Shown here: positions 6,222 to 57,666 of the stretch, piece by piece
Layout of the letters: every line of letters starts with the position of its first letter
Position numbering within the stretch: position 1 is the stretch's first letter
From: Dawidia soli
GTDB lineage: Bacteria; Bacteroidota; Bacteroidia; Cytophagales; Cyclobacteriaceae
DNA: 64,000 nucleotides
Assembly: GCF_018598185.1 (NCBI RefSeq)
Contig: NZ_JAHESC010000033.1
Coordinates: forward strand, 1 to 64,000
Direction: 5' to 3'
The notes under the pieces: generated by a model
Told to the model about the DNA's origin: nothing
Databases searched by the model: none
Seen by the model: only the letters and a program-made list of their open reading frames with translations
Position numbers and translations under genes: made by a program

Positions 6222-6591
6222 ACAGGGTAATTTTCAGGTCAAATTTAGGATCTATCAGGGCACGCAGGATCTTCCAGATAACGAGGGCAATGTTCTCAGC
6301 GGTGGGATTGATGCCCGTAAACTCGGCTACGTCCAGGTTCAGGTTGCGGTGGTCAAACTTGCGCAGGACATGTTGCTGGATCAGGTCGCTCAGCGCTTTG
6401 AGGTCGTATACATACCCGGTCTCGGGGTCGGGCTCGCCGACAAGGCTCACGATCAGCTCGTAATTATGACCATGATAGTTCGGGTTGTTGCATTTGCCGA
6501 AGACCCGTTGATTTTGCTCGTCGGACCAGGCCTCGTTGAAAAGACGGTGTGCTGCGTTAAAGTGCTCCTTGCGCGATACCTTTATCTTCAT
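6181..6591 (-). CDS. queD: 6-carboxytetrahydropterin / 6-pyruvoyl-tetrahydropterin synthase family (QueD/PTPS)
   Basis: A 136-residue T-fold enzyme acting on dihydroneopterin triphosphate. Zinc-binding histidines are seen in EHFNAAHRL and in NYHGHNYEL, followed by KFDHRNLNLDV, NPTAENIALVIW and a terminal YETERNFVEF containing the substrate-anchoring glutamate. The cysteine in FGKCNNPNYHGHNY is at the catalytic position. Together with the overlapping folE this makes a two-step route from GTP towards queuosine precursors (QueD) or a biopterin-like cofactor (PTPS); sequence alone does not separate these. A TACCTTTA box about 10 bases before the start resembles a -7 element. Confidence 0.9.
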   Translation of the reverse strand: MKIKVSRKEHFNAAHRLFNEAWSDEQNQRVFGKCNNPNYHGHNYELIVSLVGEPDPETGYVYDLKALSDLIQQHVLRKFDHRNLNLDVAEFTGINPTAENIALVIWKILRALIDPKFDLKITLYETERNFVEFPAE

Positions 6592-48573: not shown

Positions 48574-50145
48574 ATGAAAAAGCGAAAGTACACCTATGCT
48601 AAACTCTCTCTTGTTCTTTTGGCTAGCATTTTTGCAGCATGTTCCGATCACGGGGTGCTCGAGGGAGACCGTGATAAAGTGTTGGATCGGGAACCGAAAA
48701 GTGGGGAGGCGATCACGCCGCTGGCGTCGCCGGTGGGCGATGTTGTTGGAAAGCTGGTGGTCGGCTATCAGGGATGGTTTGCCTGCGCGGGTGATGGATC
48801 TGCATACAATACCTGGGTGCATTGGGGTGGTGGTGCGCAAGGCCCGCGCCCCGGTAATCAAACCTTCGATCTGTGGCCGGATGTGCGGGAGTATACTACT
48901 ACGTATCAAACCGGGTACGCCAACCTGGGCAACGGACAACCCGCGAAACTATTTTCTTCGTGGGATCCGCAGGTGGTGAACAAACACTTCGAGTGGATGC
49001 AGCAGCATGGCATCGACTGCGCGGCCATGCAACGATTTGGGAAGAGTGACGGACAGAAGGATGGTATCGCCGTCCGCGTGCGGAACGCCGCACAGACCTA
49101 CGGACGAAAGTTCTTTGTCATGTATGATCTCTCAGGGTGGACCAATTTTCAAAGCGAGATCAAAACAGATTGGACGAATGTCATTGTGGGTAATCTGAAT
49201 CTGACCGGGTCCAGTGCTTATGCGATCCAGAATGGCAAGCCCGTGGTTTGCATCTGGGGTATGGGGGTTTCCGGCCGGCCGGGCAATGTCACGTCTTATA
49301 CCGACGTCATCAACTGGTTCAAGGCGCAGGGGTGTTTTGTTATTATCGGCGTGCCGCGTGACTGGAGGAATCAGACGGTCAATCTTCCGGCGTTCGAGGC
49401 GGCGAATATGATCACACCCTGGGCCGTAGGAACGTTCAACAGCCTGGCCGGCGCCGATAGCTATGTGCCGGTCATGCAAGCGGACCTGGCGTACTGCAAC
49501 GCCCGCAACATCGATTACATGCCGGTGATATGGCCGGGCTTCTCGTGGGCTAACTGGAACGGCGGCGCACAGAATCAGATTCCGCGTCTGCACGGTGATT
49601 TTATGTGGCGCCAGTTTTATAATGTAAAGAACGCCGGGATGACAACCAGCTACGTAGCCATGTTTGACGAATATGACGAAGGCACGGCCATAGCCAAGGC
49701 CGCCGAAAACAGCAGTATGCGTCCGACGAACCAGTGGTTCCTGAGCCTCGACGCGGATGGCGTTGCCGTGTCGTCGGATTTTTACCTGCGGCTTACGCGG
49801 GATGGTGCGCAGATGTTAAAGGGACAGATCGGCCTTACGCCAAACCACCCGACGCCTCATACTACTACCGGTGGGGCAGGGGTTGTTTTCTATCAACATA
49901 TAGACTACGGTGGCGCAGCCAGTCAGGCGTTGCCGGTCGGTAACTATACCCTGGCACAGCTGGCGGCACTCGGCGTGGTAAACGACTGGGCGTCGTCTGT
50001 GCGTGTGCCTGCGGGCAGGACGCTTATTATGTATTCCGACGATAACTTCAGCGGAACGTCGTGGACCCGGACGGCGGATACTCCCAACTTTACAACGCTT
50101 TCGCCGAATGCGAATGATATGGTTTCTTCCGTGAGGGTGCAATAA
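48574..50145 (+). CDS. GH99/GH71-like glycoside hydrolase lipoprotein with C-terminal beta/gamma-crystallin domain
   Basis: A 523-residue surface or periplasmic lipoprotein (lipobox SIFAACSDHG). Residues 60-425 are a GH99/GH71-like TIM barrel: VVGYQGWFACAGDG, HFEWMQQHGIDCAAMQRF, VPRDWRNQTVNLPAF and VAMFDEYDEGTAI, which carries likely active-site acidic residues (MFDEYDEG). Residues about 437-523 form a beta/gamma-crystallin domain with two FYQHIDYGG / MYSDDNFSG strands and two canonical calcium motifs, NDWASS and NDMVSS. GH99 enzymes cut alpha-mannan-type glycans, so an alpha-mannosidic substrate is possible but unproven. It follows the SusCD operon terminator and probably belongs to the same uptake locus. 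Confidence 0.85.
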   Translation: MKKRKYTYAKLSLVLLASIFAACSDHGVLEGDRDKVLDREPKSGEAITPLASPVGDVVGKLVVGYQGWFACAGDGSAYNTWVHWGGGAQGPRPGNQTFDLWPDVREYTTTYQTGYANLGNGQPAKLFSSWDPQVVNKHFEWMQQHGIDCAAMQRFGKSDGQKDGIAVRVRNAAQTYGRKFFVMYDLSGWTNFQSEIKTDWTNVIVGNLNLTGSSAYAIQNGKPVVCIWGMGVSGRPGNVTSYTDVINWFKAQGCFVIIGVPRDWRNQTVNLPAFEAANMITPWAVGTFNSLAGADSYVPVMQADLAYCNARNIDYMPVIWPGFSWANWNGGAQNQIPRLHGDFMWRQFYNVKNAGMTTSYVAMFDEYDEGTAIAKAAENSSMRPTNQWFLSLDADGVAVSSDFYLRLTRDGAQMLKGQIGLTPNHPTPHTTTGGAGVVFYQHIDYGGAASQALPVGNYTLAQLAALGVVNDWASSVRVPAGRTLIMYSDDNFSGTSWTRTADTPNFTTLSPNANDMVSSVRVQ

Positions 50146-50151
50146 AAACGA

Positions 50152-50178
50152 AAGGGTGGATGTTTTCATCCACCCCTT
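50152..50178. terminator. Terminator between the hydrolase gene and the Y-RNA array
   Basis: GGGTGGATG / CATCCACCC (loop TTTT). On the minus strand it is followed by TTTCGTTTTT, so it terminates the Y-RNA array; on the plus strand it follows the hydrolase stop by 8 bases with a weaker T-run. Confidence 0.8.
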
Positions 50179-50185
50179 CTATAAT

Positions 50186-50337
50186 AAAATAAACAGGGCA
50201 AAAGGCGAAAGCGTACGTTTAGGCGCTCTATCCACTGAGCTATCTTGTGATGAATACTGTTAGGGTCACAAGAGCGGGACTCGAACCCGCGACCTCCCGG
50301 TTAACAGCCGAAGTAACGCTATTCTACGGCACCTGTT
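50186..50337 (-). ncRNA. Y-RNA-like element D with circularly permuted tRNA-like module (GUU loop)
   Basis: Lower stem AACAGG (50337-50332) / CCTGTT (50197-50192), then TGCCGTAG, upper stem AGCG / CGCT and the conserved TTACTTCG. The module reads, 5' to 3' on the minus strand: an anticodon-like arm (50312-50296, 7-base loop CTGTTAA with GTT at 50305-50303), T arm GCGGG-TTCGAGT-CCCGC (50290-50274), acceptor strand TCTTGTGA (50273-50266), a 15-base loop, acceptor strand TCACAAGA (50250-50243; 8 bp complementary) and D arm (50240-50225, GCTC / GAGC). The order is permuted: the acceptor strand that is 3' in a normal tRNA comes before the 5' one. It ends with TTTGC before the lower stem and an A/T-rich 3' end. 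Confidence 0.75.
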
Positions 50338-50352
50338 GTTTCTTTACTATCT

Positions 50353-50490
50353 AAAAAACCGAGCAACAACCCGGCAAGCGACTTTTATTTAATGCTCTAA
50401 CCTGGCTGAGCTACCGCAGTTTGCGCCGCAGGAGGGATTTGAACCCCCGTCCCTTAAGTCCCGAAGTAACGCTTGCCTACGGCATCGGTT
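50353..50490 (-). ncRNA. Y-RNA-like element C with permuted tRNA-like module
   Basis: Lower stem AACCGA (50490-50485) / TCGGTT (50362-50357), internal loop TGCCGTA / GGGTTGTTGC, and a perfect 8-bp upper stem GGCAAGCG (50477-50470) / CGCTTGCC (50380-50373). Then TTACTTCGG, a degenerate anticodon-like region, T arm GGGGG-TTCAAAT-CCCTC (50448-50432), acceptor strand CTGCGG (50431-50426), loop CGCAAA, acceptor strand CTGCGG (50419-50414; 6 bp with two G-T pairs) and D arm GCTC-AGCCAGGTTA-GAGC (50411-50394). Ends in a run of six T. The layout matches tRNA-like Y RNAs of the YrlA type. Confidence 0.75.
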
Positions 50491-50499
50491 TAAGTTTTT

Positions 50500-50576
50500 T
50501 AAAACAGAGGGCAACAGATCAACAGGGCTTATGTTCAATTAAAAGTCGAAGTAACCCTGCAGTACGGCACCTCTGT
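50500..50576 (-). ncRNA. Y-RNA-like element B (minimal, no tRNA module)
   Basis: A 77-base RNA with lower stem ACAGAGG (50576-50570) / CCTCTGT (50510-50504), 5' internal-loop motif TGCCGTA, upper stem CAGGG / CCCTG and then TTAC plus the hairpin TTCGA-CTTTTAA-TTGAA (50550-50534; five pairs, one of them G-T, loop of 7 with TTT in the anticodon position). The 3' internal loop ends in GTTGC. No T arm or acceptor strands. It has the architecture of a classic Y RNA. Confidence 0.72.
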
Positions 50577-50586
50577 ATAGTTTAGG

Positions 50587-50728
50587 AATAAGGAGTAAAA
50601 GACGAAACGAGTTGAGTTTGGGCGTCGCATGCCGGGAGTCGAACCCGGAACACTTCCTCTGATCTGGTCAGAGCGTGTGATTCCTCCCTGTTTTGAGCGA
50701 AGTAACTCACTTCTACGACATCCTTATT
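50587..50728 (-). ncRNA. Y-RNA-like element A with T-arm and anticodon-like arm
   Basis: Lower stem AATAAGGA (50728-50721) / TCCTTATT (50594-50587), 8 bp perfect. Then TGTCGTAG, upper stem TGAG / CTCA overlapping the conserved GTTACTTCG, a bulged hairpin TTC-g-CTC / GAG-GAA, a 17-base anticodon-like arm CTCTG-ACCAGAT-CAGAG (50673-50657) and a perfect T arm CCGGG-TTCGACT-CCCGG (50648-50632). No D arm or second acceptor strand is seen. The strand after the T arm (TGCGAC) can pair with GTCGTA of the internal loop, so a non-permuted fold is also possible. It is first in the array, 53 bases after the Ro60 stop. Confidence 0.6.
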
Positions 50729-50738
50729 TTCTTTTTAG

Positions 50739-50772
50739 AACCCTCTCCCTCCCTCACGGGAGGGAGAGGGTT
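50739..50772. other. 15-bp perfect hairpin between Ro60 and the Y-RNA array
   Basis: AACCCTCTCCCTCCC and GGGAGGGAGAGGGTT with a 4-base loop. On the minus strand it is not followed by a T-run, so Ro60 transcription could continue into the array. On the plus strand it is followed by GTTTTATA, so it may stop antisense transcription. Confidence 0.7.
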
Positions 50773-50780
50773 GTTTTATA

Positions 50781-52298
50781 CTACAATGTTATGTTCTCGA
50801 TCTCAGACAATGCCTGACGACCTTCGTCCAGTGCGTTCAACACGTCGAAGACCTTATCAGACCAGCCTGCGATCAGGTATACATCGTTACCACGTACATC
50901 TACCGGCGCCTGGCCGTGTCCGGCCAGGTCGAACAAGTACAGCTTTGCTTTTGGCGCCAGCTTCTTGTACAGTGCCCACTGCGCCGACAGTGTTGCCGTG
51001 GCCCGCGTGGAATCGCTGGTCCACAGCTGACAATCCGTAAACAACATGATCTTATCGACGATCTGACGGCGGGCGAGCAGATCCTGTACGACCTTGTAGC
51101 CGTTGGTAGAATATCCTACCTCACCTTCGCGGCGGTAGAACTCCTGCACGTTACCCAGGATGTTCTTACGCGACACGCTCACGATCTTCCAGGTATCGCC
51201 AAACATACCGGTCTGTACCTGCGCGCAACGCGACTGCAGCAGCATTCCCAGCATCAACCCGATATCGTACAGCAATACTTTGCTTTTTGCCGATACAGGC
51301 TTCTGCATCGACCCGGACACGTCGCAGGCGATGCACACCGAGGTATCGCGACCAAAGCCGCGGATGTTTGCCGCGCTATGCGCCACAGCATCTTCCAATG
51401 CGCCCAACACCATCGGTGCCAGGCCGGACTTCAGCTCTTTCACCTCGCGGTATGCCGCCAGGAAACGGAACGGCAACTGGCGTGACGTGGCTACGGCCTC
51501 ACGGTCGGACAGGTATGCACACGCGCGTTCCATCGCCTGCGATGATACACCGTACTCCAGCATATTCCGCAGGTTTCGGAGCGTGGCCATATAGCCCAGC
51601 TTGCCGCTCAGGATCAGTTCCTCCCACTGTGCGCGGAAGGCAAGGATCTTCTGTCCTTCGCTATGGAATTTTTTCTGACCCAGGCCCGACAGTGCAGTCT
51701 CCCAGGTATAAGGTATCTCCAGCGTGCCGTGCACGATCTTGTTAAACACGGCTTGTTGCTGCTCGCTCGCCGCTTTCGGGTGGACCAGGAACAAGGCGTC
51801 TTTCAGCTTGATCTCACCGGCGCGGTCGTATTTCGCGAACTGGTATTCATCAAAGGTGTTGAACGCTGCCGACAAGCCCCGCTGTATCTGCTTGGAAAGC
51901 TTGTTCAGCTTCTTGGCACCGGTACGCGCGTTGGCCAACTGGTAGTAAGCCAGCAGCTCGGTGATTTCGTCCGCGCGCTGTACTACCTGGTTCACCGTCT
52001 TCCCGATCAGGTTGTTTCCCGATTGGAGCTTTGCCAGCTCGACGGCCAGCATCAGGGGTACGCTACGCAAATGCATACGCTGTCGTGCATAGACCGCCAG
52101 CCGGGCCACAAAATCAGGCTCGTTCAGCTCGATCAGCATACGGATCCGCTCCATGCGCTCGCCTGCCTTTTCGTAGAACTTGTCGCTTAGCGATGTCGTT
52201 ACCACGGCGCTATACAGCTCCAGGCGCTCATCCAGCCGATGCGCGGTAGCGCCTGCGTGGTTTGTCAGCGTGTTGGTTGTCCGTACATTGAATTTCAT
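50781..52298 (-). CDS. rsr: Ro60-family RNA-binding protein (TROVE plus vWA), Rsr-like
   Basis: 505 residues from the ATG opening MKFNVRTTNTLTNHAG. The TROVE domain (about 15-310) is a ring of HEAT-like helices, with typical segments VARLAVYARQRMHLRSVPLMLAVELAK and LPFRFLAAYREVKELKSG. The C-terminal von Willebrand A domain (about 318-490) has the metal-binding MIDAS D326-x-S328-x-S330 in CDVSGSM. Ro60 binds misfolded non-coding RNA ends in its central hole and Y RNAs on its outer face; bacterial orthologs act with PNPase in RNA decay. The array of Y-like RNAs directly downstream on the same strand supports this function. No rtcB, rtcA or PNPase gene is in the window. Confidence 0.95.
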   Translation of the reverse strand: MKFNVRTTNTLTNHAGATAHRLDERLELYSAVVTTSLSDKFYEKAGERMERIRMLIELNEPDFVARLAVYARQRMHLRSVPLMLAVELAKLQSGNNLIGKTVNQVVQRADEITELLAYYQLANARTGAKKLNKLSKQIQRGLSAAFNTFDEYQFAKYDRAGEIKLKDALFLVHPKAASEQQQAVFNKIVHGTLEIPYTWETALSGLGQKKFHSEGQKILAFRAQWEELILSGKLGYMATLRNLRNMLEYGVSSQAMERACAYLSDREAVATSRQLPFRFLAAYREVKELKSGLAPMVLGALEDAVAHSAANIRGFGRDTSVCIACDVSGSMQKPVSAKSKVLLYDIGLMLGMLLQSRCAQVQTGMFGDTWKIVSVSRKNILGNVQEFYRREGEVGYSTNGYKVVQDLLARRQIVDKIMLFTDCQLWTSDSTRATATLSAQWALYKKLAPKAKLYLFDLAGHGQAPVDVRGNDVYLIAGWSDKVFDVLNALDEGRQALSEIENITL

Positions 52299-52425: not shown

Positions 52426-53013
52426 TTACCAGGGCCTCAACATCTTAATAAGGAAGGCCAGCAACATTACCCGGTCGAGCGAGAGCCTTAAATGCTTCAG
52501 AGCCGCCGAGATATAATTCTCCACCGTACGCGGTGAGATCTTCATGTGCTCGGCAATACGTTGCGTGGGCTCGTGCTGCATGCGGCTGAGCCGGAAGGCG
52601 GTTTGATAGTGCTCGGGTAATCCGGAGAGGCTTTCTTCGATGGTCTTATAGAGGTCCTTCAGGTGCAGGAGCTCTTCACTGGAATTGTCCACACGCTCGG
52701 CGGTATAGAGTACAAAATCGGCGGCGTAGCGCTCGCGTACCGAGCGGGATTTGATGAATGTCAGGATCTTGTTTTTTGCGGCGCCGAAAAGCCAGGCTTC
52801 GACCGAGGTGTTGATCACGAGTGTATCGCGTTTGGCCCAGAGCGCCAGGAAGATCTCCTGTACGATCTCTTCGCAGACTTCCTTCTTCTTGACTTTGCTA
52901 TAGACATACCGATACAGGGCCGGCTCGAAGCGGTCGTAGAGTGCCTCAAAGGCTTTTGCCTGTTCAGCAGCAGGCAACGCGAAGAAGTCCGAATGGTTGA
53001 ATCCAGACGCCAT
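52426..53013 (-). CDS. ECF-type RNA polymerase sigma factor (SusD-associated group)
   Basis: A 195-residue sigma factor with region 2 (FEALYDRFEPALYRYVYSKVKKKEVCEEIVQEIFLALWAKRDTL) and region 4 (LPEHYQTAFRLSRMQHEPTQRIAEHMKISPRTVENYISAALKHL), the latter recognising the -35 element. The short linker and lack of region 3 are standard for ECF factors. It lies divergent to a FecR anti-sigma gene and upstream of a SusC with an STN domain, so it should switch on that SusC/SusD operon when the substrate is bound. Confidence 0.94.
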   Translation of the reverse strand: MASGFNHSDFFALPAAEQAKAFEALYDRFEPALYRYVYSKVKKKEVCEEIVQEIFLALWAKRDTLVINTSVEAWLFGAAKNKILTFIKSRSVRERYAADFVLYTAERVDNSSEELLHLKDLYKTIEESLSGLPEHYQTAFRLSRMQHEPTQRIAEHMKISPRTVENYISAALKHLRLSLDRVMLLAFLIKMLRPW

Positions 53014-53209
53014 AGAGTGGACCAGGGTATTGATTGAAGAAAGTTAGAATATTTTTATTTCAATCGAAAGCATGATCCGGATTTGATTGAAAACCAATGG
53101 TTTGGACATGATATAAAAGAATTTTACAGAAAACGTGTGCGTAAGGAGCGGCTCGGGCTACATCCTGTTATGGGGCCGCAGAAGTGGCCTGTTATCATCG
53201 ACTATCTAT

Positions 53210-54166
53210 ATGAAGAAATCAGAATTTGAGCAGCTTATCGAGAAGTATCAGCAGGGGCTGTTGTCCGGAAAAGAAAAGGAGCTCATGGACGCATGGTTTG
53301 ACGCCATCGGCCGTGACGAGGCACACCCCTTGCGGACGACGGCGGAGCGCGATGTTTTGAGGCGGCGGGTGATGGCGGGCGTGCACGGACATAAAACATG
53401 GGCCCCGGTGTATGCCTGGAGGATCGCAGCCTCTTTATTGTTGATAGCCGTGGCGTCGTTTGCGATCTGGCAGTATATCGCACACGATGCCTATCTGCCG
53501 GTGGCGCAGCAACTGACGGCTTCGTCCGCCGAGGGATTTGTCCATAAGGTCCTCCTGGATGACGGAAGCCTGGTATGGCTGAAGAACAACAGCTCGCTGA
53601 CCTATCCGGAGAAATTCACGGGGAAAGACCGGCGGGTTGTGCTTCGCGGCGAAGCGCTGTTTGAAGTAGCCAAAGACGCCAGCCATCCCTTTATTATCCA
53701 ATGCGGCGAGCTGACGACGACCGTGCTGGGTACCAGTTTTAATATCAAGTCCAGCGAAAAAGACATTGAAGTGGTCGTGCTGACGGGCAAGGTCTCGCTG
53801 ACGGCGCAAAACGACGCGTCGGGCATTGTCGTCCTGCCGTCTGAGAAAGCGATATACCGCAAGGAGATGAAGCAGCTGGCCAAGGTCGAGGCGCAGCCAG
53901 AGGAGTCGGTGTCCAGCATTTCGGGCACGGAATACAACATGAATTTCGAGCAAACGCGGATGCAGGAAGCTATCCGGCGGATCGAGCTCAAATTCAATGT
54001 GACCATATCCCTGACCGACCCGAGCATGGGGAACTGTATCATTACGGCCAACCTGACGGACCAATCGCTCAGGAAGACCCTAGACGTCATAACCCTGACG
54101 TTGCGCGCGCACTACGAAGTGAATGGAAAGACCGTCACCCTGACCGGCACGGGGTGCAGTGAATAA
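53210..54166 (+). CDS. FecR-family anti-sigma factor
   Basis: 318 residues from the ATG opening MKKSEFEQLIEKYQQG. A short cytoplasmic anti-sigma part, one membrane helix (about 65-85, WRIAASLLLIAVASFAIWQYI), a FecR periplasmic domain (LDDGSLVWLKNNSSLTYPEKFTGKDRRVVLRGEALFEVAKD, FNIKSSEKDIEVVVLTGKVSL) and a DUF4974 C-terminal domain ending YEVNGKTVTLTG. It holds the sigma factor until the STN domain of the next SusC signals. I rejected the upstream start at 53135, which adds 25 residues that look random. Confidence 0.94.
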   Translation: MKKSEFEQLIEKYQQGLLSGKEKELMDAWFDAIGRDEAHPLRTTAERDVLRRRVMAGVHGHKTWAPVYAWRIAASLLLIAVASFAIWQYIAHDAYLPVAQQLTASSAEGFVHKVLLDDGSLVWLKNNSSLTYPEKFTGKDRRVVLRGEALFEVAKDASHPFIIQCGELTTTVLGTSFNIKSSEKDIEVVVLTGKVSLTAQNDASGIVVLPSEKAIYRKEMKQLAKVEAQPEESVSSISGTEYNMNFEQTRMQEAIRRIELKFNVTISLTDPSMGNCIITANLTDQSLRKTLDVITLTLRAHYEVNGKTVTLTGTGCSE

Positions 54167-54193
54167 CGTATCCGCTACCTAAACAAATAACAT

Positions 54194-54288
54194 ATGAACA
54201 AACCCGCCAATAGTACCAATACAAGCTAGAAAAAAGCCAATACCGCTACAGCCTAAAAAAAGGCAGAAGTGTTCGCACCACCTCTGCC
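54194..54288 (+). other. FecR-SusC intergenic leader: possible 11-residue peptide and hairpin
   Basis: Between the FecR stop and SusC start (185 bases) are an ATG-initiated 11-residue frame (54194-54229) and a hairpin GGCAGA (54262-54267) / TCTGCC (54283-54288). They may form a leader control region of the operon. There is no independent proof. Confidence 0.25.
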
Positions 54289-54351
54289 CCCCGTCAAAAA
54301 CGGTAGGCTAATGTTTCACCTCGAGAGTTTCACACTAAACCTTTAACAAAA

Positions 54352-57300
54352 ATGCAAAAATTTACGATCAGTTGGATCGGTAAGCTTATGCGTATTACCC
54401 TAATACAGGCAACTCTTGCCATGACCCTTTTCGGTATCGCGATCGCCGGCGACAACTACGGCCAGCTTCTCGAACTGCAGGTGACGGTAAAATACCGTAA
54501 CGAATCCATCCGGAATGTACTTTCAGGCATTGAGCGCAAGAGCTCGGTCAAATTTGCGTACAGCGGCAGCATGCCCGCCCTGGAAGAAAAAGTGACCATT
54601 GCGGTAAATAGCACCCGGCTAAAAGATGTGCTGGAGACCCTGCTAAAGCCCCGCGGTATAGCATACATCGAAGAGAGCGACTTTATCATCCTTTCCGACC
54701 GGCCCCTGGACCAGAAGGCAAAAAATCCCGATAACTATCAATCCATGCTTACGCCGGTCGACCGGACCGTGTCTGGTATTGTGTCGGACGGAGAGAACGC
54801 CGGCCCGTTACCGGGCGTAAACGTCGTGATCAAAGGAACGAGCATCGGTACCACTACCGACGCCGACGGCCGGTACTCTCTGAACGTGCCCGACGAGGGG
54901 GGTGTGCTGGTATTTTCGTTTATCGGCTATGCGACGCAGGAAGTGATTATCAACGGCCGGACGACCATCGATGTGGCGATGGCGGCCGATATTACATCCC
55001 TGGACGAAGTCGTCGTCGTGGGGTATGGCACGCAGCAGCGAAAGAACGTGACGACAGCCATTACGCAGGTTTCGTCGGAAGACCTTTTGCAGGTAGCCGG
55101 CAACGGAGCGTTGATGGCCATACAGGGCAAAGTGGCGGGGTTGTCGATCGTCAACACCGCGGCGGCCGACCCCAATTCCACCCCGGACTTTCAGTTGCGG
55201 GGTGTATCCTCCCGCAACGCGGGCCTGGGGCCGCTGTTCGTGATCAACGGTATACCGGGCGGCAACATCGACAACCTCAACCAGAACGACATCGAGTCGG
55301 TGACCGTGTTGAAAGGGGGCGCTGCCGCGGCCATTTATGGTACCCGGGGCAGCAACGGTGTCATTCTTGTGACGACCAAGAAAGGAACCACCACTCCCCA
55401 GGCTTTTTATGATGGCTATGTCAGCTTCAATTATTTAGCCAATACGTTGGACGTCCTTTCGCGGGACGAATTTGTGGCGAATGGCCGGGGCGTCGATTAC
55501 CACGGCAATACCGACTGGTTAAAATCCATCACCCACGAACCGGCCGTATCGCAGAAACATACGCTGCAGCTCTCCGGTGGAAGCGATCTGACCAATTATA
55601 TGATCTCCTTCGACTACCGCGATGCCGATGGAATCGACCTGCGATCGAACAAAGAGGAGTACGGTGCGCGGCTAAACCTGAATCACCACTCGGCCAATAA
55701 TCTGTACGTTGCCACCATTACGATTGCGCCGCGCTATTTAAGATCCAATAATATCAGCAAGAACGGTTTTAGCCAGGCGTTGTTCCTAAACCCGACGATA
55801 CCCGTTCAGGATACCCTGAACAGTGCGCGGTATTTTAATATCCGCACCGGGTTTGATGGTGCCTTTAACCCCGTAGAGGAACTAAAGACAGTCGAGAGCG
55901 GCACGGAAGGGAAATACCTCGACTGGAGCGCTTCGTTCAGACTGAACCTGCTGAAGAACCTGTACACGCAGGTCAGCCTCAGCGAGCAGACGACCGACTT
56001 CTTTGACTTTGGATTCACGCCTTCGTATAACACTACCCGGATCAATAACGACGGCGGGAGGAATACAGCCAGCCGGGCGTATAAGAAGCGCGATCAAAAG
56101 ATCTTTGAGTGGATCGGCAATTACAATCTCTCCTTCGACAAACACAACGTAGAGGTCATGGGCGGCTATTCGTTCAACTATTTCGTCAATGAAGGGATGA
56201 ACGCCTCCAATGAGCAATTTCCCTCGGATGTGCTCACGTATAATAACCTGGGGACCGGAACCTGGATCCTGGAGAGCCCCCAAAACCGGTTGGGTTCGTA
56301 TAAATCGGATGCCAAGCTGATAGCCTTTTTCGGCCGCGTGAACTATGACTTTGCCGACCGGTATTATGTCTCCGCCAGCTTGCGTCGTGAAGGATCATCC
56401 AAGTTTGGTATCGGCAACAAGTGGGGCAATTTTCCCGGTGTTTCCGTGGGATGGCGGATCACTAACGAAGCCTTTTTCCCGGCGGTGGATGCCATCGACG
56501 ATCTTAAATTCCGGGCAGACTTCGGGGTGACCGGAAATCAGGATTTTAACCGTGGAGGCGAGGACCTGGGCAGTTACATGTCCATGGACACCTATTCGGG
56601 CTATGGGTTCTATGCCTATCAGGGTGTATACTACCAGGTGTGGGGCCCCAGCCAAAATACCAACTACAACCTGCGGTGGGAAAAGTCCGAGAATATAAAC
56701 ATCGGTGTCGATTTCGAGCTCTTCGACCGGAGACTGACCGGCAGCGTGAACTATTATACCCGGAAGAATAAAGATCTCCTGGGTAACTACAATGTTCCTG
56801 TCCCGCCCAATGTGCAAGGCGCTACCTATGTAAACGTCGGTACGATGAAGAACTCCGGTTTGGAGATCCAGCTGGAGGGCGAGCCCTATCGTTCGGATAA
56901 ATTTACCTATGGGGTGACATTTGCCGGCGCCACCAACAGCAATGAGTTTGTGTCGTTTTCAAACGAGCTGTACCATGGTCAGAACTTTTCAGACATCGCA
57001 GGCCTGGGTGGCATGGGCAGCTCCGGACTGAATGCGCAGCGCCTGGAAGAAGGCAAACGCATTGGCAGCTTCTACATGCTGAAATCCGCCGGGGTGGATG
57101 CCACCGGCCGGTTATTGGTTTACGACAAGGCCGGAGAGGTCATTCCGGGGAACCGGGCGAAAGCCGAAGACCGCCAGTATGTGGGGAACGGGCTTCCGAA
57201 GTTCACCGCCAGCCTGGGCAACAACTTCAGCTACGGCAACTTCAGCCTGAGTATCTTTTTACGTGGTGCCTTTGGATATGATCTGTACAATACCACCGCG

Positions 57301-57666
57301 TATTTCCTCGGTACACCCGCGACCCAGAAAGGTGTCAACGTGCTGGCATCGGCGTATGACGGTGGAAAGTATTCGGCCCTCACCAATCCCGAGACGTACT
57401 CATCGCTTTCCGATTACTTTCTCGAAAAGGGTGACTTTGTGAAGATCGATAACGTGACGCTGGGCTATACGTTCAAGAACCCCATCGAGTTCCTGTCGTC
57501 GGTAAGACTCTATTTTACTGCGCGGAATTTGTACACGTTCACTAAGTTCACCGGTGGTGATCCCGAATCGGTGAGTGTGAACGGCTTGACGCCGGGTATC
57601 AATACCTCGCTGCCGTACTATCCTTCTTCTACCCAGCTCATCGCTGGCTTACAACTCAAGTTTTAA
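54352..57666 (+). CDS. SusC/RagA-family TonB-dependent receptor with STN signalling domain
   Basis: A 1104-residue outer-membrane importer. After the signal peptide lies an STN domain (about 30-115: LLELQVTVKYRNESIRNVLSGIERKSSVKFAYSGSM ending with IILSDRPL), then the carboxypeptidase-D-like domain (RTVSGIVSDGENAGPLPGVNVVIKGTSIGTT), TonB-box-like LDEVVVVGYGTQQRKNVTTA, plug and barrel ending LIAGLQLKF. The STN domain fits the FecR/sigma pair upstream: substrate binding should relay to FecR and free the sigma factor. The CCTTTAACAAAA tract just before the ATG is a usual initiation region in this phylum. Confidence 0.96.
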   Translation: MQKFTISWIGKLMRITLIQATLAMTLFGIAIAGDNYGQLLELQVTVKYRNESIRNVLSGIERKSSVKFAYSGSMPALEEKVTIAVNSTRLKDVLETLLKPRGIAYIEESDFIILSDRPLDQKAKNPDNYQSMLTPVDRTVSGIVSDGENAGPLPGVNVVIKGTSIGTTTDADGRYSLNVPDEGGVLVFSFIGYATQEVIINGRTTIDVAMAADITSLDEVVVVGYGTQQRKNVTTAITQVSSEDLLQVAGNGALMAIQGKVAGLSIVNTAAADPNSTPDFQLRGVSSRNAGLGPLFVINGIPGGNIDNLNQNDIESVTVLKGGAAAAIYGTRGSNGVILVTTKKGTTTPQAFYDGYVSFNYLANTLDVLSRDEFVANGRGVDYHGNTDWLKSITHEPAVSQKHTLQLSGGSDLTNYMISFDYRDADGIDLRSNKEEYGARLNLNHHSANNLYVATITIAPRYLRSNNISKNGFSQALFLNPTIPVQDTLNSARYFNIRTGFDGAFNPVEELKTVESGTEGKYLDWSASFRLNLLKNLYTQVSLSEQTTDFFDFGFTPSYNTTRINNDGGRNTASRAYKKRDQKIFEWIGNYNLSFDKHNVEVMGGYSFNYFVNEGMNASNEQFPSDVLTYNNLGTGTWILESPQNRLGSYKSDAKLIAFFGRVNYDFADRYYVSASLRREGSSKFGIGNKWGNFPGVSVGWRITNEAFFPAVDAIDDLKFRADFGVTGNQDFNRGGEDLGSYMSMDTYSGYGFYAYQGVYYQVWGPSQNTNYNLRWEKSENINIGVDFELFDRRLTGSVNYYTRKNKDLLGNYNVPVPPNVQGATYVNVGTMKNSGLEIQLEGEPYRSDKFTYGVTFAGATNSNEFVSFSNELYHGQNFSDIAGLGGMGSSGLNAQRLEEGKRIGSFYMLKSAGVDATGRLLVYDKAGEVIPGNRAKAEDRQYVGNGLPKFTASLGNNFSYGNFSLSIFLRGAFGYDLYNTTAYFLGTPATQKGVNVLASAYDGGKYSALTNPETYSSLSDYFLEKGDFVKIDNVTLGYTFKNPIEFLSSVRLYFTARNLYTFTKFTGGDPESVSVNGLTPGINTSLPYYPSSTQLIAGLQLKF

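What the first reader, a model, noticed from the sequence alone, without database searches (positions are those of the whole stretch)
50186..52298. Ro60 gene followed by four tandem Y-RNA-like elements
The 50,146-50,780 gap looks like broken tRNA debris at first sight, but on the strand of the Ro60 gene it resolves into four units. Each has a lower stem, TGYCGTA, an upper stem and an identical TTACTTCG. The lower stems are different sequences that pair perfectly (8, 7, 6 and 6 bp), so structure is conserved while sequence is not. Gaps between units are only about 10-15 bases. Bacterial Ro60 loci with one or two Y RNAs are known (Deinococcus Rsr, Salmonella and mycobacterial YrlA), but four dissimilar Y RNAs in one array suggests that one Ro60 uses several RNA tethers or gates.
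Basis: partly seen in the sequence, partly recalled or inferred. Interest (0 to 1): 0.95.

Follow-up and report, generated by a model that had tools for sequence, protein, structure and literature searches.

The report
Tandem Y-RNA array beside Ro60
Next to its gene for the ring protein Ro60, this bacterium carries four different small RNA genes that share one presumed docking stem for the ring but carry different heads, two of them shaped like a cut-and-rejoined tRNA, and related bacteria keep similar mixed sets.

Summary
Downstream of an intact Ro60 gene (50781-52298, -) lie four Y-RNA-like units (50190-50728, -), then a terminator-like hairpin. All share an anchor: lower stem, bulged U, G-C and Y-R pairs, upper stem, UUACUUCG. 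The heads differ. U1 resembles the Deinococcus Y RNA (T-arm plus another hairpin). U2 is a bare 75-nt anchor. U3 and U4 are circularly permuted tRNA mimics (YrlA-type). Covariation is strong: 149 model matches are 96% paired, against 43-48% with partners slid. Such arrays lie beside Ro60 across Bacteroidota: in an even phylum draw, 28 of 29 Ro60 loci have at least one unit and 23 of 29 at least two, within 1.5 kb. Some phages carry arrays too. In near relatives U1- and U4-type units group by type, not by genome, and no source holds two strong U1-type matches. No Y RNA reached Rfam's thresholds in the window or the 24 relative and phage loci scanned. Bacterial Y RNAs, tRNA mimicry and small sets (Salmonella yrlBA) are known, so this is a new variant: an expanded, typed repertoire. 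The main catalogue paper could not be read. Expression, Ro60 binding and the heads' functions are untested.

The parts
50781..52298 (-). Ro60 / Rsr gene (TROVE ring + vWA), 505 aa, only TROVE gene found in the genome
   Evidence: Pfam TROVE E 5e-30, vWA_Ro60 26.7 bits, just below that model's cut-off of 27.7; one TROVE gene in own genome; AlphaFold model mean pLDDT 82.5, fold hits 9kop, 1yvp, 2nvo
50587..50728 (-). U1: Y RNA of Deinococcus type, 142 nt (anchor + hairpin + T-arm)
   Evidence: Rfam Deinococcus_Y_RNA 27.5 bits over the full model, below its gathering score of 80; class alignment A2 and its controls; clade 100/99 with 7 relatives
50698..50720 (-). U1 anchor motif TGTCGTA-N8-TTACTTCG; 8-bp lower stem 50721-50728 with 50587-50594
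   Evidence: sequence
50657..50673 (-). U1 hairpin CTCTGA-CCAGA-TCAGAG; the corresponding stem changes on both sides in relatives
50632..50648 (-). U1 T-arm-like hairpin CCGGG-TTCGACT-CCCGG (stem invariant in the 8 class members, so covariation is silent on it)
50503..50577 (-). U2: anchor-only Y RNA, 75 nt, no tRNA-like part
   Evidence: fold z -3.92; A4 covariation
50547..50569 (-). U2 anchor motif; 7-bp lower stem 50570-50576 with 50504-50510
50355..50492 (-). U3: YrlA-type Y RNA, 138 nt, permuted tRNA core
   Evidence: Rfam YrlA 27.2 bits over the full model, below its gathering score of 69; R1 113.5 bits, a training row
50462..50484 (-). U3 anchor motif; 7-bp lower stem 50485-50491 with 50356-50362
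50394..50448 (-). U3 permuted tRNA core: T-arm 50432-50448, closed acceptor hairpin 50414-50431, TA, D-arm 50394-50411
50190..50339 (-). U4: YrlA-type Y RNA, 150 nt, permuted tRNA core
   Evidence: Rfam YrlA 33.8 bits over model positions 23-87, below its gathering score of 69; R1 128.7 bits, a training row; clade 98/98
50309..50331 (-). U4 anchor motif; 6-bp lower stem 50332-50337 with 50192-50197
50225..50290 (-). U4 permuted tRNA core: T-arm 50274-50290, closed 8-bp acceptor hairpin 50243-50273, TA, D-arm 50225-50240
50150..50179 (-). terminator-like hairpin (13 pairs) + T-run after the array
   Evidence: consensus scan only; 5 terminator-like sites found vs mean 2.6 in shuffles
50739..50772 (.). 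15-bp GC-rich palindrome between Ro60 and U1; T-run only on the + strand

Best explanation
This is a Ro60 (Rsr) locus whose single ring protein is served by a tandem array of Y RNAs of different types. SHOWN by sequence and comparison: every unit carries the same anchor (lower stem, bulged U, G-C, Y-R, upper stem, UUACUUCG); the heads differ (Deinococcus-type two-hairpin head, bare anchor, permuted tRNA mimics); both stems of the anchor and the tRNA core are under pairing selection; in the nearest relatives the U1 and U4 types are kept as separate lineages; units sit next to Ro60, in about a third of loci near RNA-repair genes. INFERRED: the units are co-transcribed and trimmed at the lower stems; each anchor docks on the Ro60 ring, so the heads compete for one ring and act as interchangeable adaptors. 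The Deinococcus-type head would tether PNPase, the tRNA mimics would recruit or decoy tRNA-acting proteins, and the bare anchor would be a gate that occupies the ring without a tether.
For: Locus specificity: the exact motif is found in 10 of 13 Ro60+ and 0 of 46 Ro60- relatives, 25 of 26 hits lying within 2.3 kb of Ro60; in the phylum draw in 15 of 31 Ro60+ and 11 of 364 Ro60- genomes, the latter one hit each, scattered as in the reversed-pattern control. Structure: A3 is 95% paired vs 42-52% slid, 0/500 shuffles; A5, 149 matches, 96% paired, 31 of 32 pairs changed on both sides, covariation score 0.726 vs 0.228; third anchor base with the base two before the 3' stem: C-G 161, T-A 113, T-G 14, C-A 3 when the next base is C, other combinations 22, of 313 units; G-C in the 10 of 12 phage anchors whose 3' stem was found. 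Typed repertoire: tree by type; R3 at >=60 bits gives 54 hits in 54 of 81 sources (8 of them training rows) and 12 in 12 of 29 loci of the phylum draw, never two in one. Prevalence: 28 of 29 with one or more units, 23 of 29 with two or more. Tight packing: median gap 10 nt over the 228 of 238 gaps under 400 nt. Context: in 80 loci, RtcB near 27, WYL-domain protein 29, RlaP 8. The Deinococcus Y RNA's two hairpins, one T-arm-like, bind PNPase KH/S1 (passages of PMC6181284).
Against: No expression, binding or processing data. Single-sequence folds of U1, U3 and U4 are not unusually stable. The U1 class rests on 8 sequences; one of five measures (further pair types) does not beat its shuffles (414 of 500 as high), and its T-arm stem never varies. 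The set is not fixed: the nearest relative (L020, 90% Ro60 identity) lacks U1, 18 of 81 sources lack an R3 hit of 45 bits, and 17 of 29 loci of the phylum draw lack one of 60 (1.5-kb flanks). The exact motif is missing in 16 of 31 Ro60+ genomes, so the anchor varies. The U3 group is unresolved in the tree. The window's RtcB genes lie on other contigs. The sigma-70-type scan found no promoter on the - strand, but it does not cover other promoter types. One bare unit lies away from Ro60 in a Ro60+ genome (G008). The published functions of the heads come from other phyla.
Confidence: 0.8

Rival explanations
1. Redundant dosage: the units are tandem duplicates that drifted; all are equivalent Y RNAs and the array only raises Y RNA supply.
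For: Copy number varies widely between genomes; L020 lacks U1 yet keeps the other three units.
Against: In near relatives U1- and U4-type units group by type, not by genome; no source holds two R3 matches of 60 bits or more; heads differ in architecture, not only in sequence.
Confidence: 0.12
2. Decoy and repair island: the tRNA mimics act mainly as decoys for, or reporters of, tRNA-cleaving toxins, with Ro60 holding them stable; the array belongs to tRNA-repair conflict systems.
For: RtcB, RlaP and WYL neighbours; presence on phages; some Ro60 loci lie beside tRNA gene clusters; Hughes et al. propose YrlA as a possible competitive inhibitor of an anticodon nuclease (passages of PMC7790460).
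Against: The mimics show no anticodon arm; U1 and U2 lack a full tRNA core; the same passages state that YrlA is not a substrate of the anticodon nuclease; RtcB is near only 27 of 80 loci and not in the window.
Confidence: 0.15
3. Decayed tRNA genes or tRNA-array debris that happens to lie beside Ro60.
For: ARAGORN calls a tRNA-Asn at 50264-50338; the permuted core of R1 also matches junctions of tandem ordinary tRNA genes.
Against: Covariation of stems, an anchor kept across a phylum, confinement to Ro60 loci, conserved types.
Confidence: 0.01

Closest known systems
Salmonella rsr-yrlBA-rtcBA RNA repair operon
   Same: Ro60 gene with more than one Y RNA and RtcB nearby (PMC7790460 passages); permuted tRNA-like YrlA
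   Different: Here four units (more in relatives) with three head types in one array; a WYL-domain protein near Ro60 in 29 of 80 loci (RtcR was not searched for); RtcB not adjacent in the window genome
YrlA family (Rfam RF02553; PDB 6CU1)
   Same: T-arm, closed acceptor hairpin, UA, D-arm inside a stem formed by the RNA's ends; circular permutation of tRNA (PMC11472068 passages)
   Different: U3 and U4 score 27.2 and 33.8 bits against a gathering score of 69
Deinococcus radiodurans Y RNA (Rfam RF01053), RYPER tether
   Same: Lower stem, one-base bulge, two pairs, upper stem followed by UUACUUC, two hairpins one of them a T-arm (U1; model line)
   Different: 27.5 bits vs gathering 80; PNPase binding untested; sits in an array with YrlA-type and bare units
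Vertebrate Y RNAs (hY1, hY3, hY4, hY5)
   Same: Several Y RNAs for one Ro60; bulged lower stem as Ro60 site (review passages)
   Different: No sequence homology shown; no tRNA mimic described in the passages; not compared here

Membership tests
Ro60 / Rsr (TROVE) | TROVE domain, HEAT ring plus vWA domain | tested here: met
   DxSxS at D326-S328-S330 invariant in 13 proteins; vWA_Ro60 26.7 bits is just under its 27.7 cut-off
Bacterial Y RNA (kind) | Encoded beside Ro60 | tested here: met
Bacterial Y RNA (kind) | 5' and 3' ends pair into a long stem with a conserved internal site | tested here: met
Bacterial Y RNA (kind) | RNA is expressed and bound by Ro60 | not testable with these tools
   needs RNA sequencing and pull-down
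YrlA (RF02553) | Permuted tRNA-like domain (T-arm, acceptor, D-arm) | tested here: met
   U3 and U4; not met by U1 and U2
YrlA (RF02553) | Score at or above Rfam's gathering threshold | tested here: not met
   33.8 and 27.2 vs 69 bits; no YrlA match at threshold in the window, 12 related loci or 12 phage loci
Deinococcus Y RNA (RF01053) | Two hairpins, one T-arm-like, above the same bulged stem | tested here: met
   U1:
Deinococcus Y RNA (RF01053) | Score at or above Rfam's gathering threshold | tested here: not met
   27.5 vs 80 bits
[quoted passage not shown]
   inferred from PMC6181284 passages
rsr-yrl-rtc RNA repair operon | RtcB adjacent to Ro60 and Y RNA | tested here: not met
   window: RtcB on contigs C47 and C69, window on C49; relatives: near in 27 of 80 loci

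The most novel reading that the evidence does not exclude
Bacteroidota, and several phages, run Ro60 as a multi-adaptor hub: one ring, one constant docking stem, and a typed, inherited cassette of heads (a single PNPase-type tether, one to several tRNA mimics aimed at different tRNA-acting partners, and bare stems that keep the ring closed). The mix of RNAs would set what the ring degrades, guards or repairs. The permuted tRNA head may have arisen from the junction of two tandem copies of one tRNA gene, which has the same order of parts.
Probability: 0.35. Interest if true: 0.8.

Novelty: new variant of a known kind. Interest (0 to 1): 0.62.

Why it matters
Why one Ro60 should need several Y RNAs is an open question from human to bacterium. 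Here the question is written out in DNA: the presumed docking stem is constant and the heads vary by type, side by side, in species of which several are named strains. Deleting units one at a time would test tether, gate and tRNA-mimic roles directly. It also gives covariance models for Y RNAs that current Rfam models miss, and a pairing rule (third base of the anchor with the base two before the 3' stem) that holds in bacteria and phages.

Tried and rejected
tRNA debris: rejected by covariation and locus specificity. The ARAGORN tRNA-Asn call is rejected: its span (50264-50338) begins inside U4's 5' stem and takes in U4's anchor and T-arm.

Thermodynamic stability as evidence: only U2 stands out, so I did not rely on it.

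Arrays in IMG/VR: two scans with a doubled exact motif at 110-140 nt found nothing. That pattern demands TGY, and the phage units found later read TGG, so the scans say nothing about phages of the TGG type.

Model R1 in 59 relatives gave matches in 47 genomes. Of the 24 listed matches of 50 bits or more, 23 lie on the Ro60 contig. The other (G008:C203) reads as a bare anchor with its 3' stem and a T-run, an orphan on a 35-kb contig. Many weaker matches cover only about model positions 28-117; the two places I checked are tandem copies of tRNA-Phe (6) and tRNA-Met (5). The remaining weak matches were not checked.

Limits of my own analysis. Classes are heuristic; 73 of 384 units had no 3' end found and were left out. 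The Y-R table uses 313 of 384 units. The acceptor control leans to high scores because the D-arm was chosen by acceptor pairing, so I do not use it. The tree holds 37 units from nine loci; units identical over the compared stretch were removed first (for example L027_1), and several inner branches are open or weak. Shuffle controls do not keep relatedness; the slid controls do. The 80 named loci are the best-scoring of 582, so their prevalence is biased. The phylum draw is the fairer figure: 31 Ro60+ genomes, of which 29 loci were searched (own left out, G396 not fetched), with 1.5-kb flanks around the Ro60 match. In L122, L123 and L124 the units lie upstream of Ro60, not downstream.

Literature: the catalogue paper (Chen 2014), the reviews by Sim and Wolin and the 6CU1 paper are not held, so I cannot say that such arrays are unpublished. 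What I recall of the 2014 abstract (Y RNAs near Ro60 in over 250 bacterial and phage species, at least one per species tRNA-like) means that several per species was already known. Held-paper searches. Of held papers I saw passages only: PMC7790460, PMC4726728, PMC8394870, PMC7824862, PMC11472068, PMC9569102, PMC6340977, PMC8058203, PMC6181284.
Full report
WHAT IS THERE. The window belongs to a genome close to Parachryseolinea silvisoli (Ro60 90% identical), a species of Bacteroidota, order Cytophagales. A Ro60 gene lies at 50781-52298 on the minus strand. It matches TROVE (E 5e-30) and the Ro60 vWA model just below its cut-off, is the only TROVE gene found in the genome, and its predicted structure (mean pLDDT 82.5) finds Ro60, Rsr and TROVE structures as the 13 matches with E <= 0.001. 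Downstream on the same strand are four units and then a terminator-like hairpin at 50150-50179.

THE FOUR UNITS. Reading 5' to 3' on the minus strand, each unit begins with one arm of a lower stem, then TGYCGTA, one arm of an upper stem, then TTACTTCG; the far end supplies the other arms. The lower stems are different sequences in each unit. U1 (142 nt) holds a T-arm-like hairpin and a second hairpin and aligns to the Deinococcus Y RNA model from first to last position at 27.5 bits. U3 (138 nt) and U4 (150 nt) align to YrlA at 27.2 (full model) and 33.8 bits (positions 23-87). All are far below Rfam's gathering scores of 80 and 69. U2 (75 nt) is a bare hairpin. In U3 and U4 the order is T-arm, a closed acceptor hairpin, UA, D-arm: a circular permutation of tRNA, as described for YrlA (PDB 6CU1; passages of PMC11472068).

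IS THE STRUCTURE REAL? RNAalifold on 14 U3/U4-class units from eight genomes found, without being told, the lower stem, a bulged U, G-C, Y-R, the upper stem, T-arm, acceptor and D-arm; 21 of 32 pairs show changes on both sides. Pairing is 95%, falls to 42-52% when partners are slid, and none of 500 shuffles reached the observed values. For nine U2-class units 94% of cells pair and the covariation score is 0.333 against 0.110; for one measure (pairs with changes on both sides) 8 of 500 shuffles reached the observed value. For eight U1-class units 96% pair, 49-54% when slid, covariation 0.273 against 0.169; one measure (further pair types) does not beat the shuffles, and the T-arm stem never varies. 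A covariance model (R1) then gave 458 matches in the window and 80 related loci (E <= 0.01); these include its 14 training rows and at least one place that is not a unit (L059 172-236, part of the model only). On 149 distinct best matches 96.0% of cells pair, 43-48% when slid, 31 of 32 pairs have double changes, and the covariation score is 0.726 against 0.228; that alignment was fitted to the model, so it leans towards it. Independently, in 384 units parsed by script the 5' arm finds a perfect 5-nt partner in its own unit in 314 cases, against 88 when 3' regions are swapped between units. The third base of TGYCGTA pairs with the base two before the 3' arm: with C as the next base, C with G 161, T with A 113, T with G 14, C with A 3; other combinations 22, of 313.

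WHERE IT OCCURS. The exact anchor occurs in 10 of 13 Ro60-bearing and 0 of 46 Ro60-lacking relatives, and in 15 of 31 against 11 of 364 genomes in an even draw from the phylum. Of the 28 hits in Ro60-bearing genomes of that draw, 27 lie within 2 kb of Ro60 by my reading of the coordinates; the 11 hits elsewhere are one per genome. With model R1 instead of the exact motif, 28 of 29 Ro60 loci of that draw hold at least one unit and 23 of 29 at least two within 1.5 kb, all on the Ro60 strand, including distant Ro60s; only L128 has none (counts by my tally of the 96 listed matches). In L122, L123 and L124 the units lie upstream. Among 80 named loci (the best-scoring 80 of 582), 79 hold at least one relaxed motif; the one without has 204 bases downstream. 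In the same 80 loci the relaxed motif occurs 462 times downstream on the Ro60 strand, against 11 upstream on that strand, 5 downstream antisense and 17 upstream antisense.

TYPES, NOT COPIES. A tree of 37 units from the window and eight near relatives groups units by position and type: the U1 class 100/99, the U4 class 98/98, and a U2 group (94/85, drawn open); the U3 class is not resolved. Model R3 (U1 type) at 60 bits or more finds 54 units in 54 of 81 sources (8 are its training rows) and 12 in 12 of 29 loci of the phylum draw, never two in one source; at 45 bits it finds 64 in 63 of 81 sources. By contrast R1 finds several high-scoring tRNA-mimic units in many arrays. By heuristic classes, 49 of 80 arrays hold both a unit with T-arm and D-arm and a unit without a T-arm. 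Against fixity: P. silvisoli lacks U1, 18 of 81 sources have no R3 match of 45 bits, and 17 of 29 loci of the phylum draw have none of 60.

NEIGHBOURHOOD. In 80 named loci (flanks up to 5 kb), proteins clustered by BLAST give RtcB near 27, a WYL-domain protein near 29, an RNase_T-like exonuclease near 11 and RlaP near 8 (one representative of each cluster was scanned with Pfam). The window's own RtcB genes are on other contigs. Of 60 loci scanned with ARAGORN, several have clusters of tRNA calls, of which some overlap Y RNA units and are false.

PHAGES. Ro60 is found in 93 of 50,697 phage records. Of 12 phage loci fetched, R1 finds matches in six: Caulobacter phage CcrPW (6 by R1; 7 anchors by motif), Xanthomonas phage Olaya (3, plus one by R2), Brevundimonas phage Marchewka (3), Rhizobium phage RHph_TM30 (5 full-length), Streptomyces phage Quantum (2) and Microcystis phage Mvi-JY20 (2, one of which lies over annotated tRNA genes and is probably a tRNA junction). 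Six gave no R1 match at E <= 0.01 (L145, L146, L150, L154, L155, L156); R2 was run on L145-L148 only. The motif scan found 12 anchors in 4 of the 12 loci; in the 10 with a 3' stem the anchor reads TGG and the 3' partner is C: a third pair type at the same position.

HOW IT MOST LIKELY WORKS. Known: in Deinococcus the Y RNA's stem binds Rsr, and a region with two hairpins, one T-arm-like, binds PNPase KH and S1 domains; RNA appears to thread from the ring into PNPase (passages of PMC6181284). Y RNAs also sterically block misfolded RNAs from Ro60 (passages of PMC6340977). Inferred: the constant anchor docks each unit on the ring; U1 is the PNPase tether, U3 and U4 present tRNA-like surfaces to tRNA-acting proteins, U2 is a gate without a head. 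Tight spacing (median 10 nt) suggests one transcript trimmed to the lower stems.

ORIGIN OF THE PERMUTED HEAD. R1's core (T-arm, acceptor, D-arm) also matches tandem copies of one tRNA gene: two such places checked are six tRNA-Phe and five tRNA-Met genes. The junction of two tandem copies has the same order of parts, so a permuted head could have arisen from one. This is a hypothesis.

NOVELTY. Bacterial Y RNAs, tRNA mimicry and more than one Y RNA per species are known. New to the tools used here are the size and generality of the arrays, the constant anchor with its pairing rule, and the co-inherited head types; no Y RNA family reached its Rfam threshold in the window, 12 related loci or 12 phage loci. 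The main catalogue paper could not be read, so priority is open. I file this as a new variant of a known kind.

Noticed in passing
L147 (Caulobacter phage CcrPW) 1852-2946; L148 (Xanthomonas phage Olaya) 2318-2933; L149 2279-2924; L153 1730-2857: Tandem Y-RNA-like arrays (up to 7 anchors), not annotated in the records, upstream of phage Ro60 genes, with TGG...CC in place of TGY...RC where a 3' stem was found; below Rfam thresholds.
   Followed up: partly
L028, L040, L044, L070, L078, L026, L079: Ro60 and Y RNA units lie within or beside clusters of 3-17 tRNA genes called by ARAGORN (60 loci scanned). Some calls overlap Y RNA units and are false (L070 7095, L075 6810, L078 6768).
   Followed up: partly
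L157 (G016:C1:561300-562300), L158 (G016:C1:1250900-1251700): The permuted tRNA part of model R1 matches tandem copies of tRNA-Phe and tRNA-Met, hinting how a permuted tRNA head could arise.
   Followed up: partly
window 50264-50338: ARAGORN reports a tRNA-Asn over U4; genome annotations may list such Y RNAs as tRNA genes.
   Followed up: partly
window 50739-50772: A 15-bp GC-rich palindrome between Ro60 and U1, without a T-run on the Ro60 strand; might separate the Ro60 message from the Y RNAs.
   Followed up: no
window 48574-50145: Convergent lipoprotein-like gene with a Glyco_hydro_99 match below its cut-off; its C-terminal end looks like a beta/gamma-crystallin domain (recalled motif, not searched).
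   Followed up: no
window 52426-57666: ECF-like sigma factor, then a FecR-like and a SusC-like gene by eye: a usual Bacteroidota uptake locus beside Ro60.
   Followed up: no
L083 1498-2191: Array lies about 3 kb upstream of Ro60 on the same strand instead of downstream, with one unit downstream at 6525.
   Followed up: no
L149 6758-7015: Permuted tmRNA (Rfam RF04321) in Brevundimonas phage Marchewka near its Ro60 gene.
   Followed up: no
L159 (G008:C203:1400-2500), unit at 1893-1964 of the contig: Orphan bare-anchor unit (51 bits, R1) with lower stem CCCCAA/TTGGGG and a T-run, on a contig other than that of Ro60 in a Ro60-bearing genome.
   Followed up: partly
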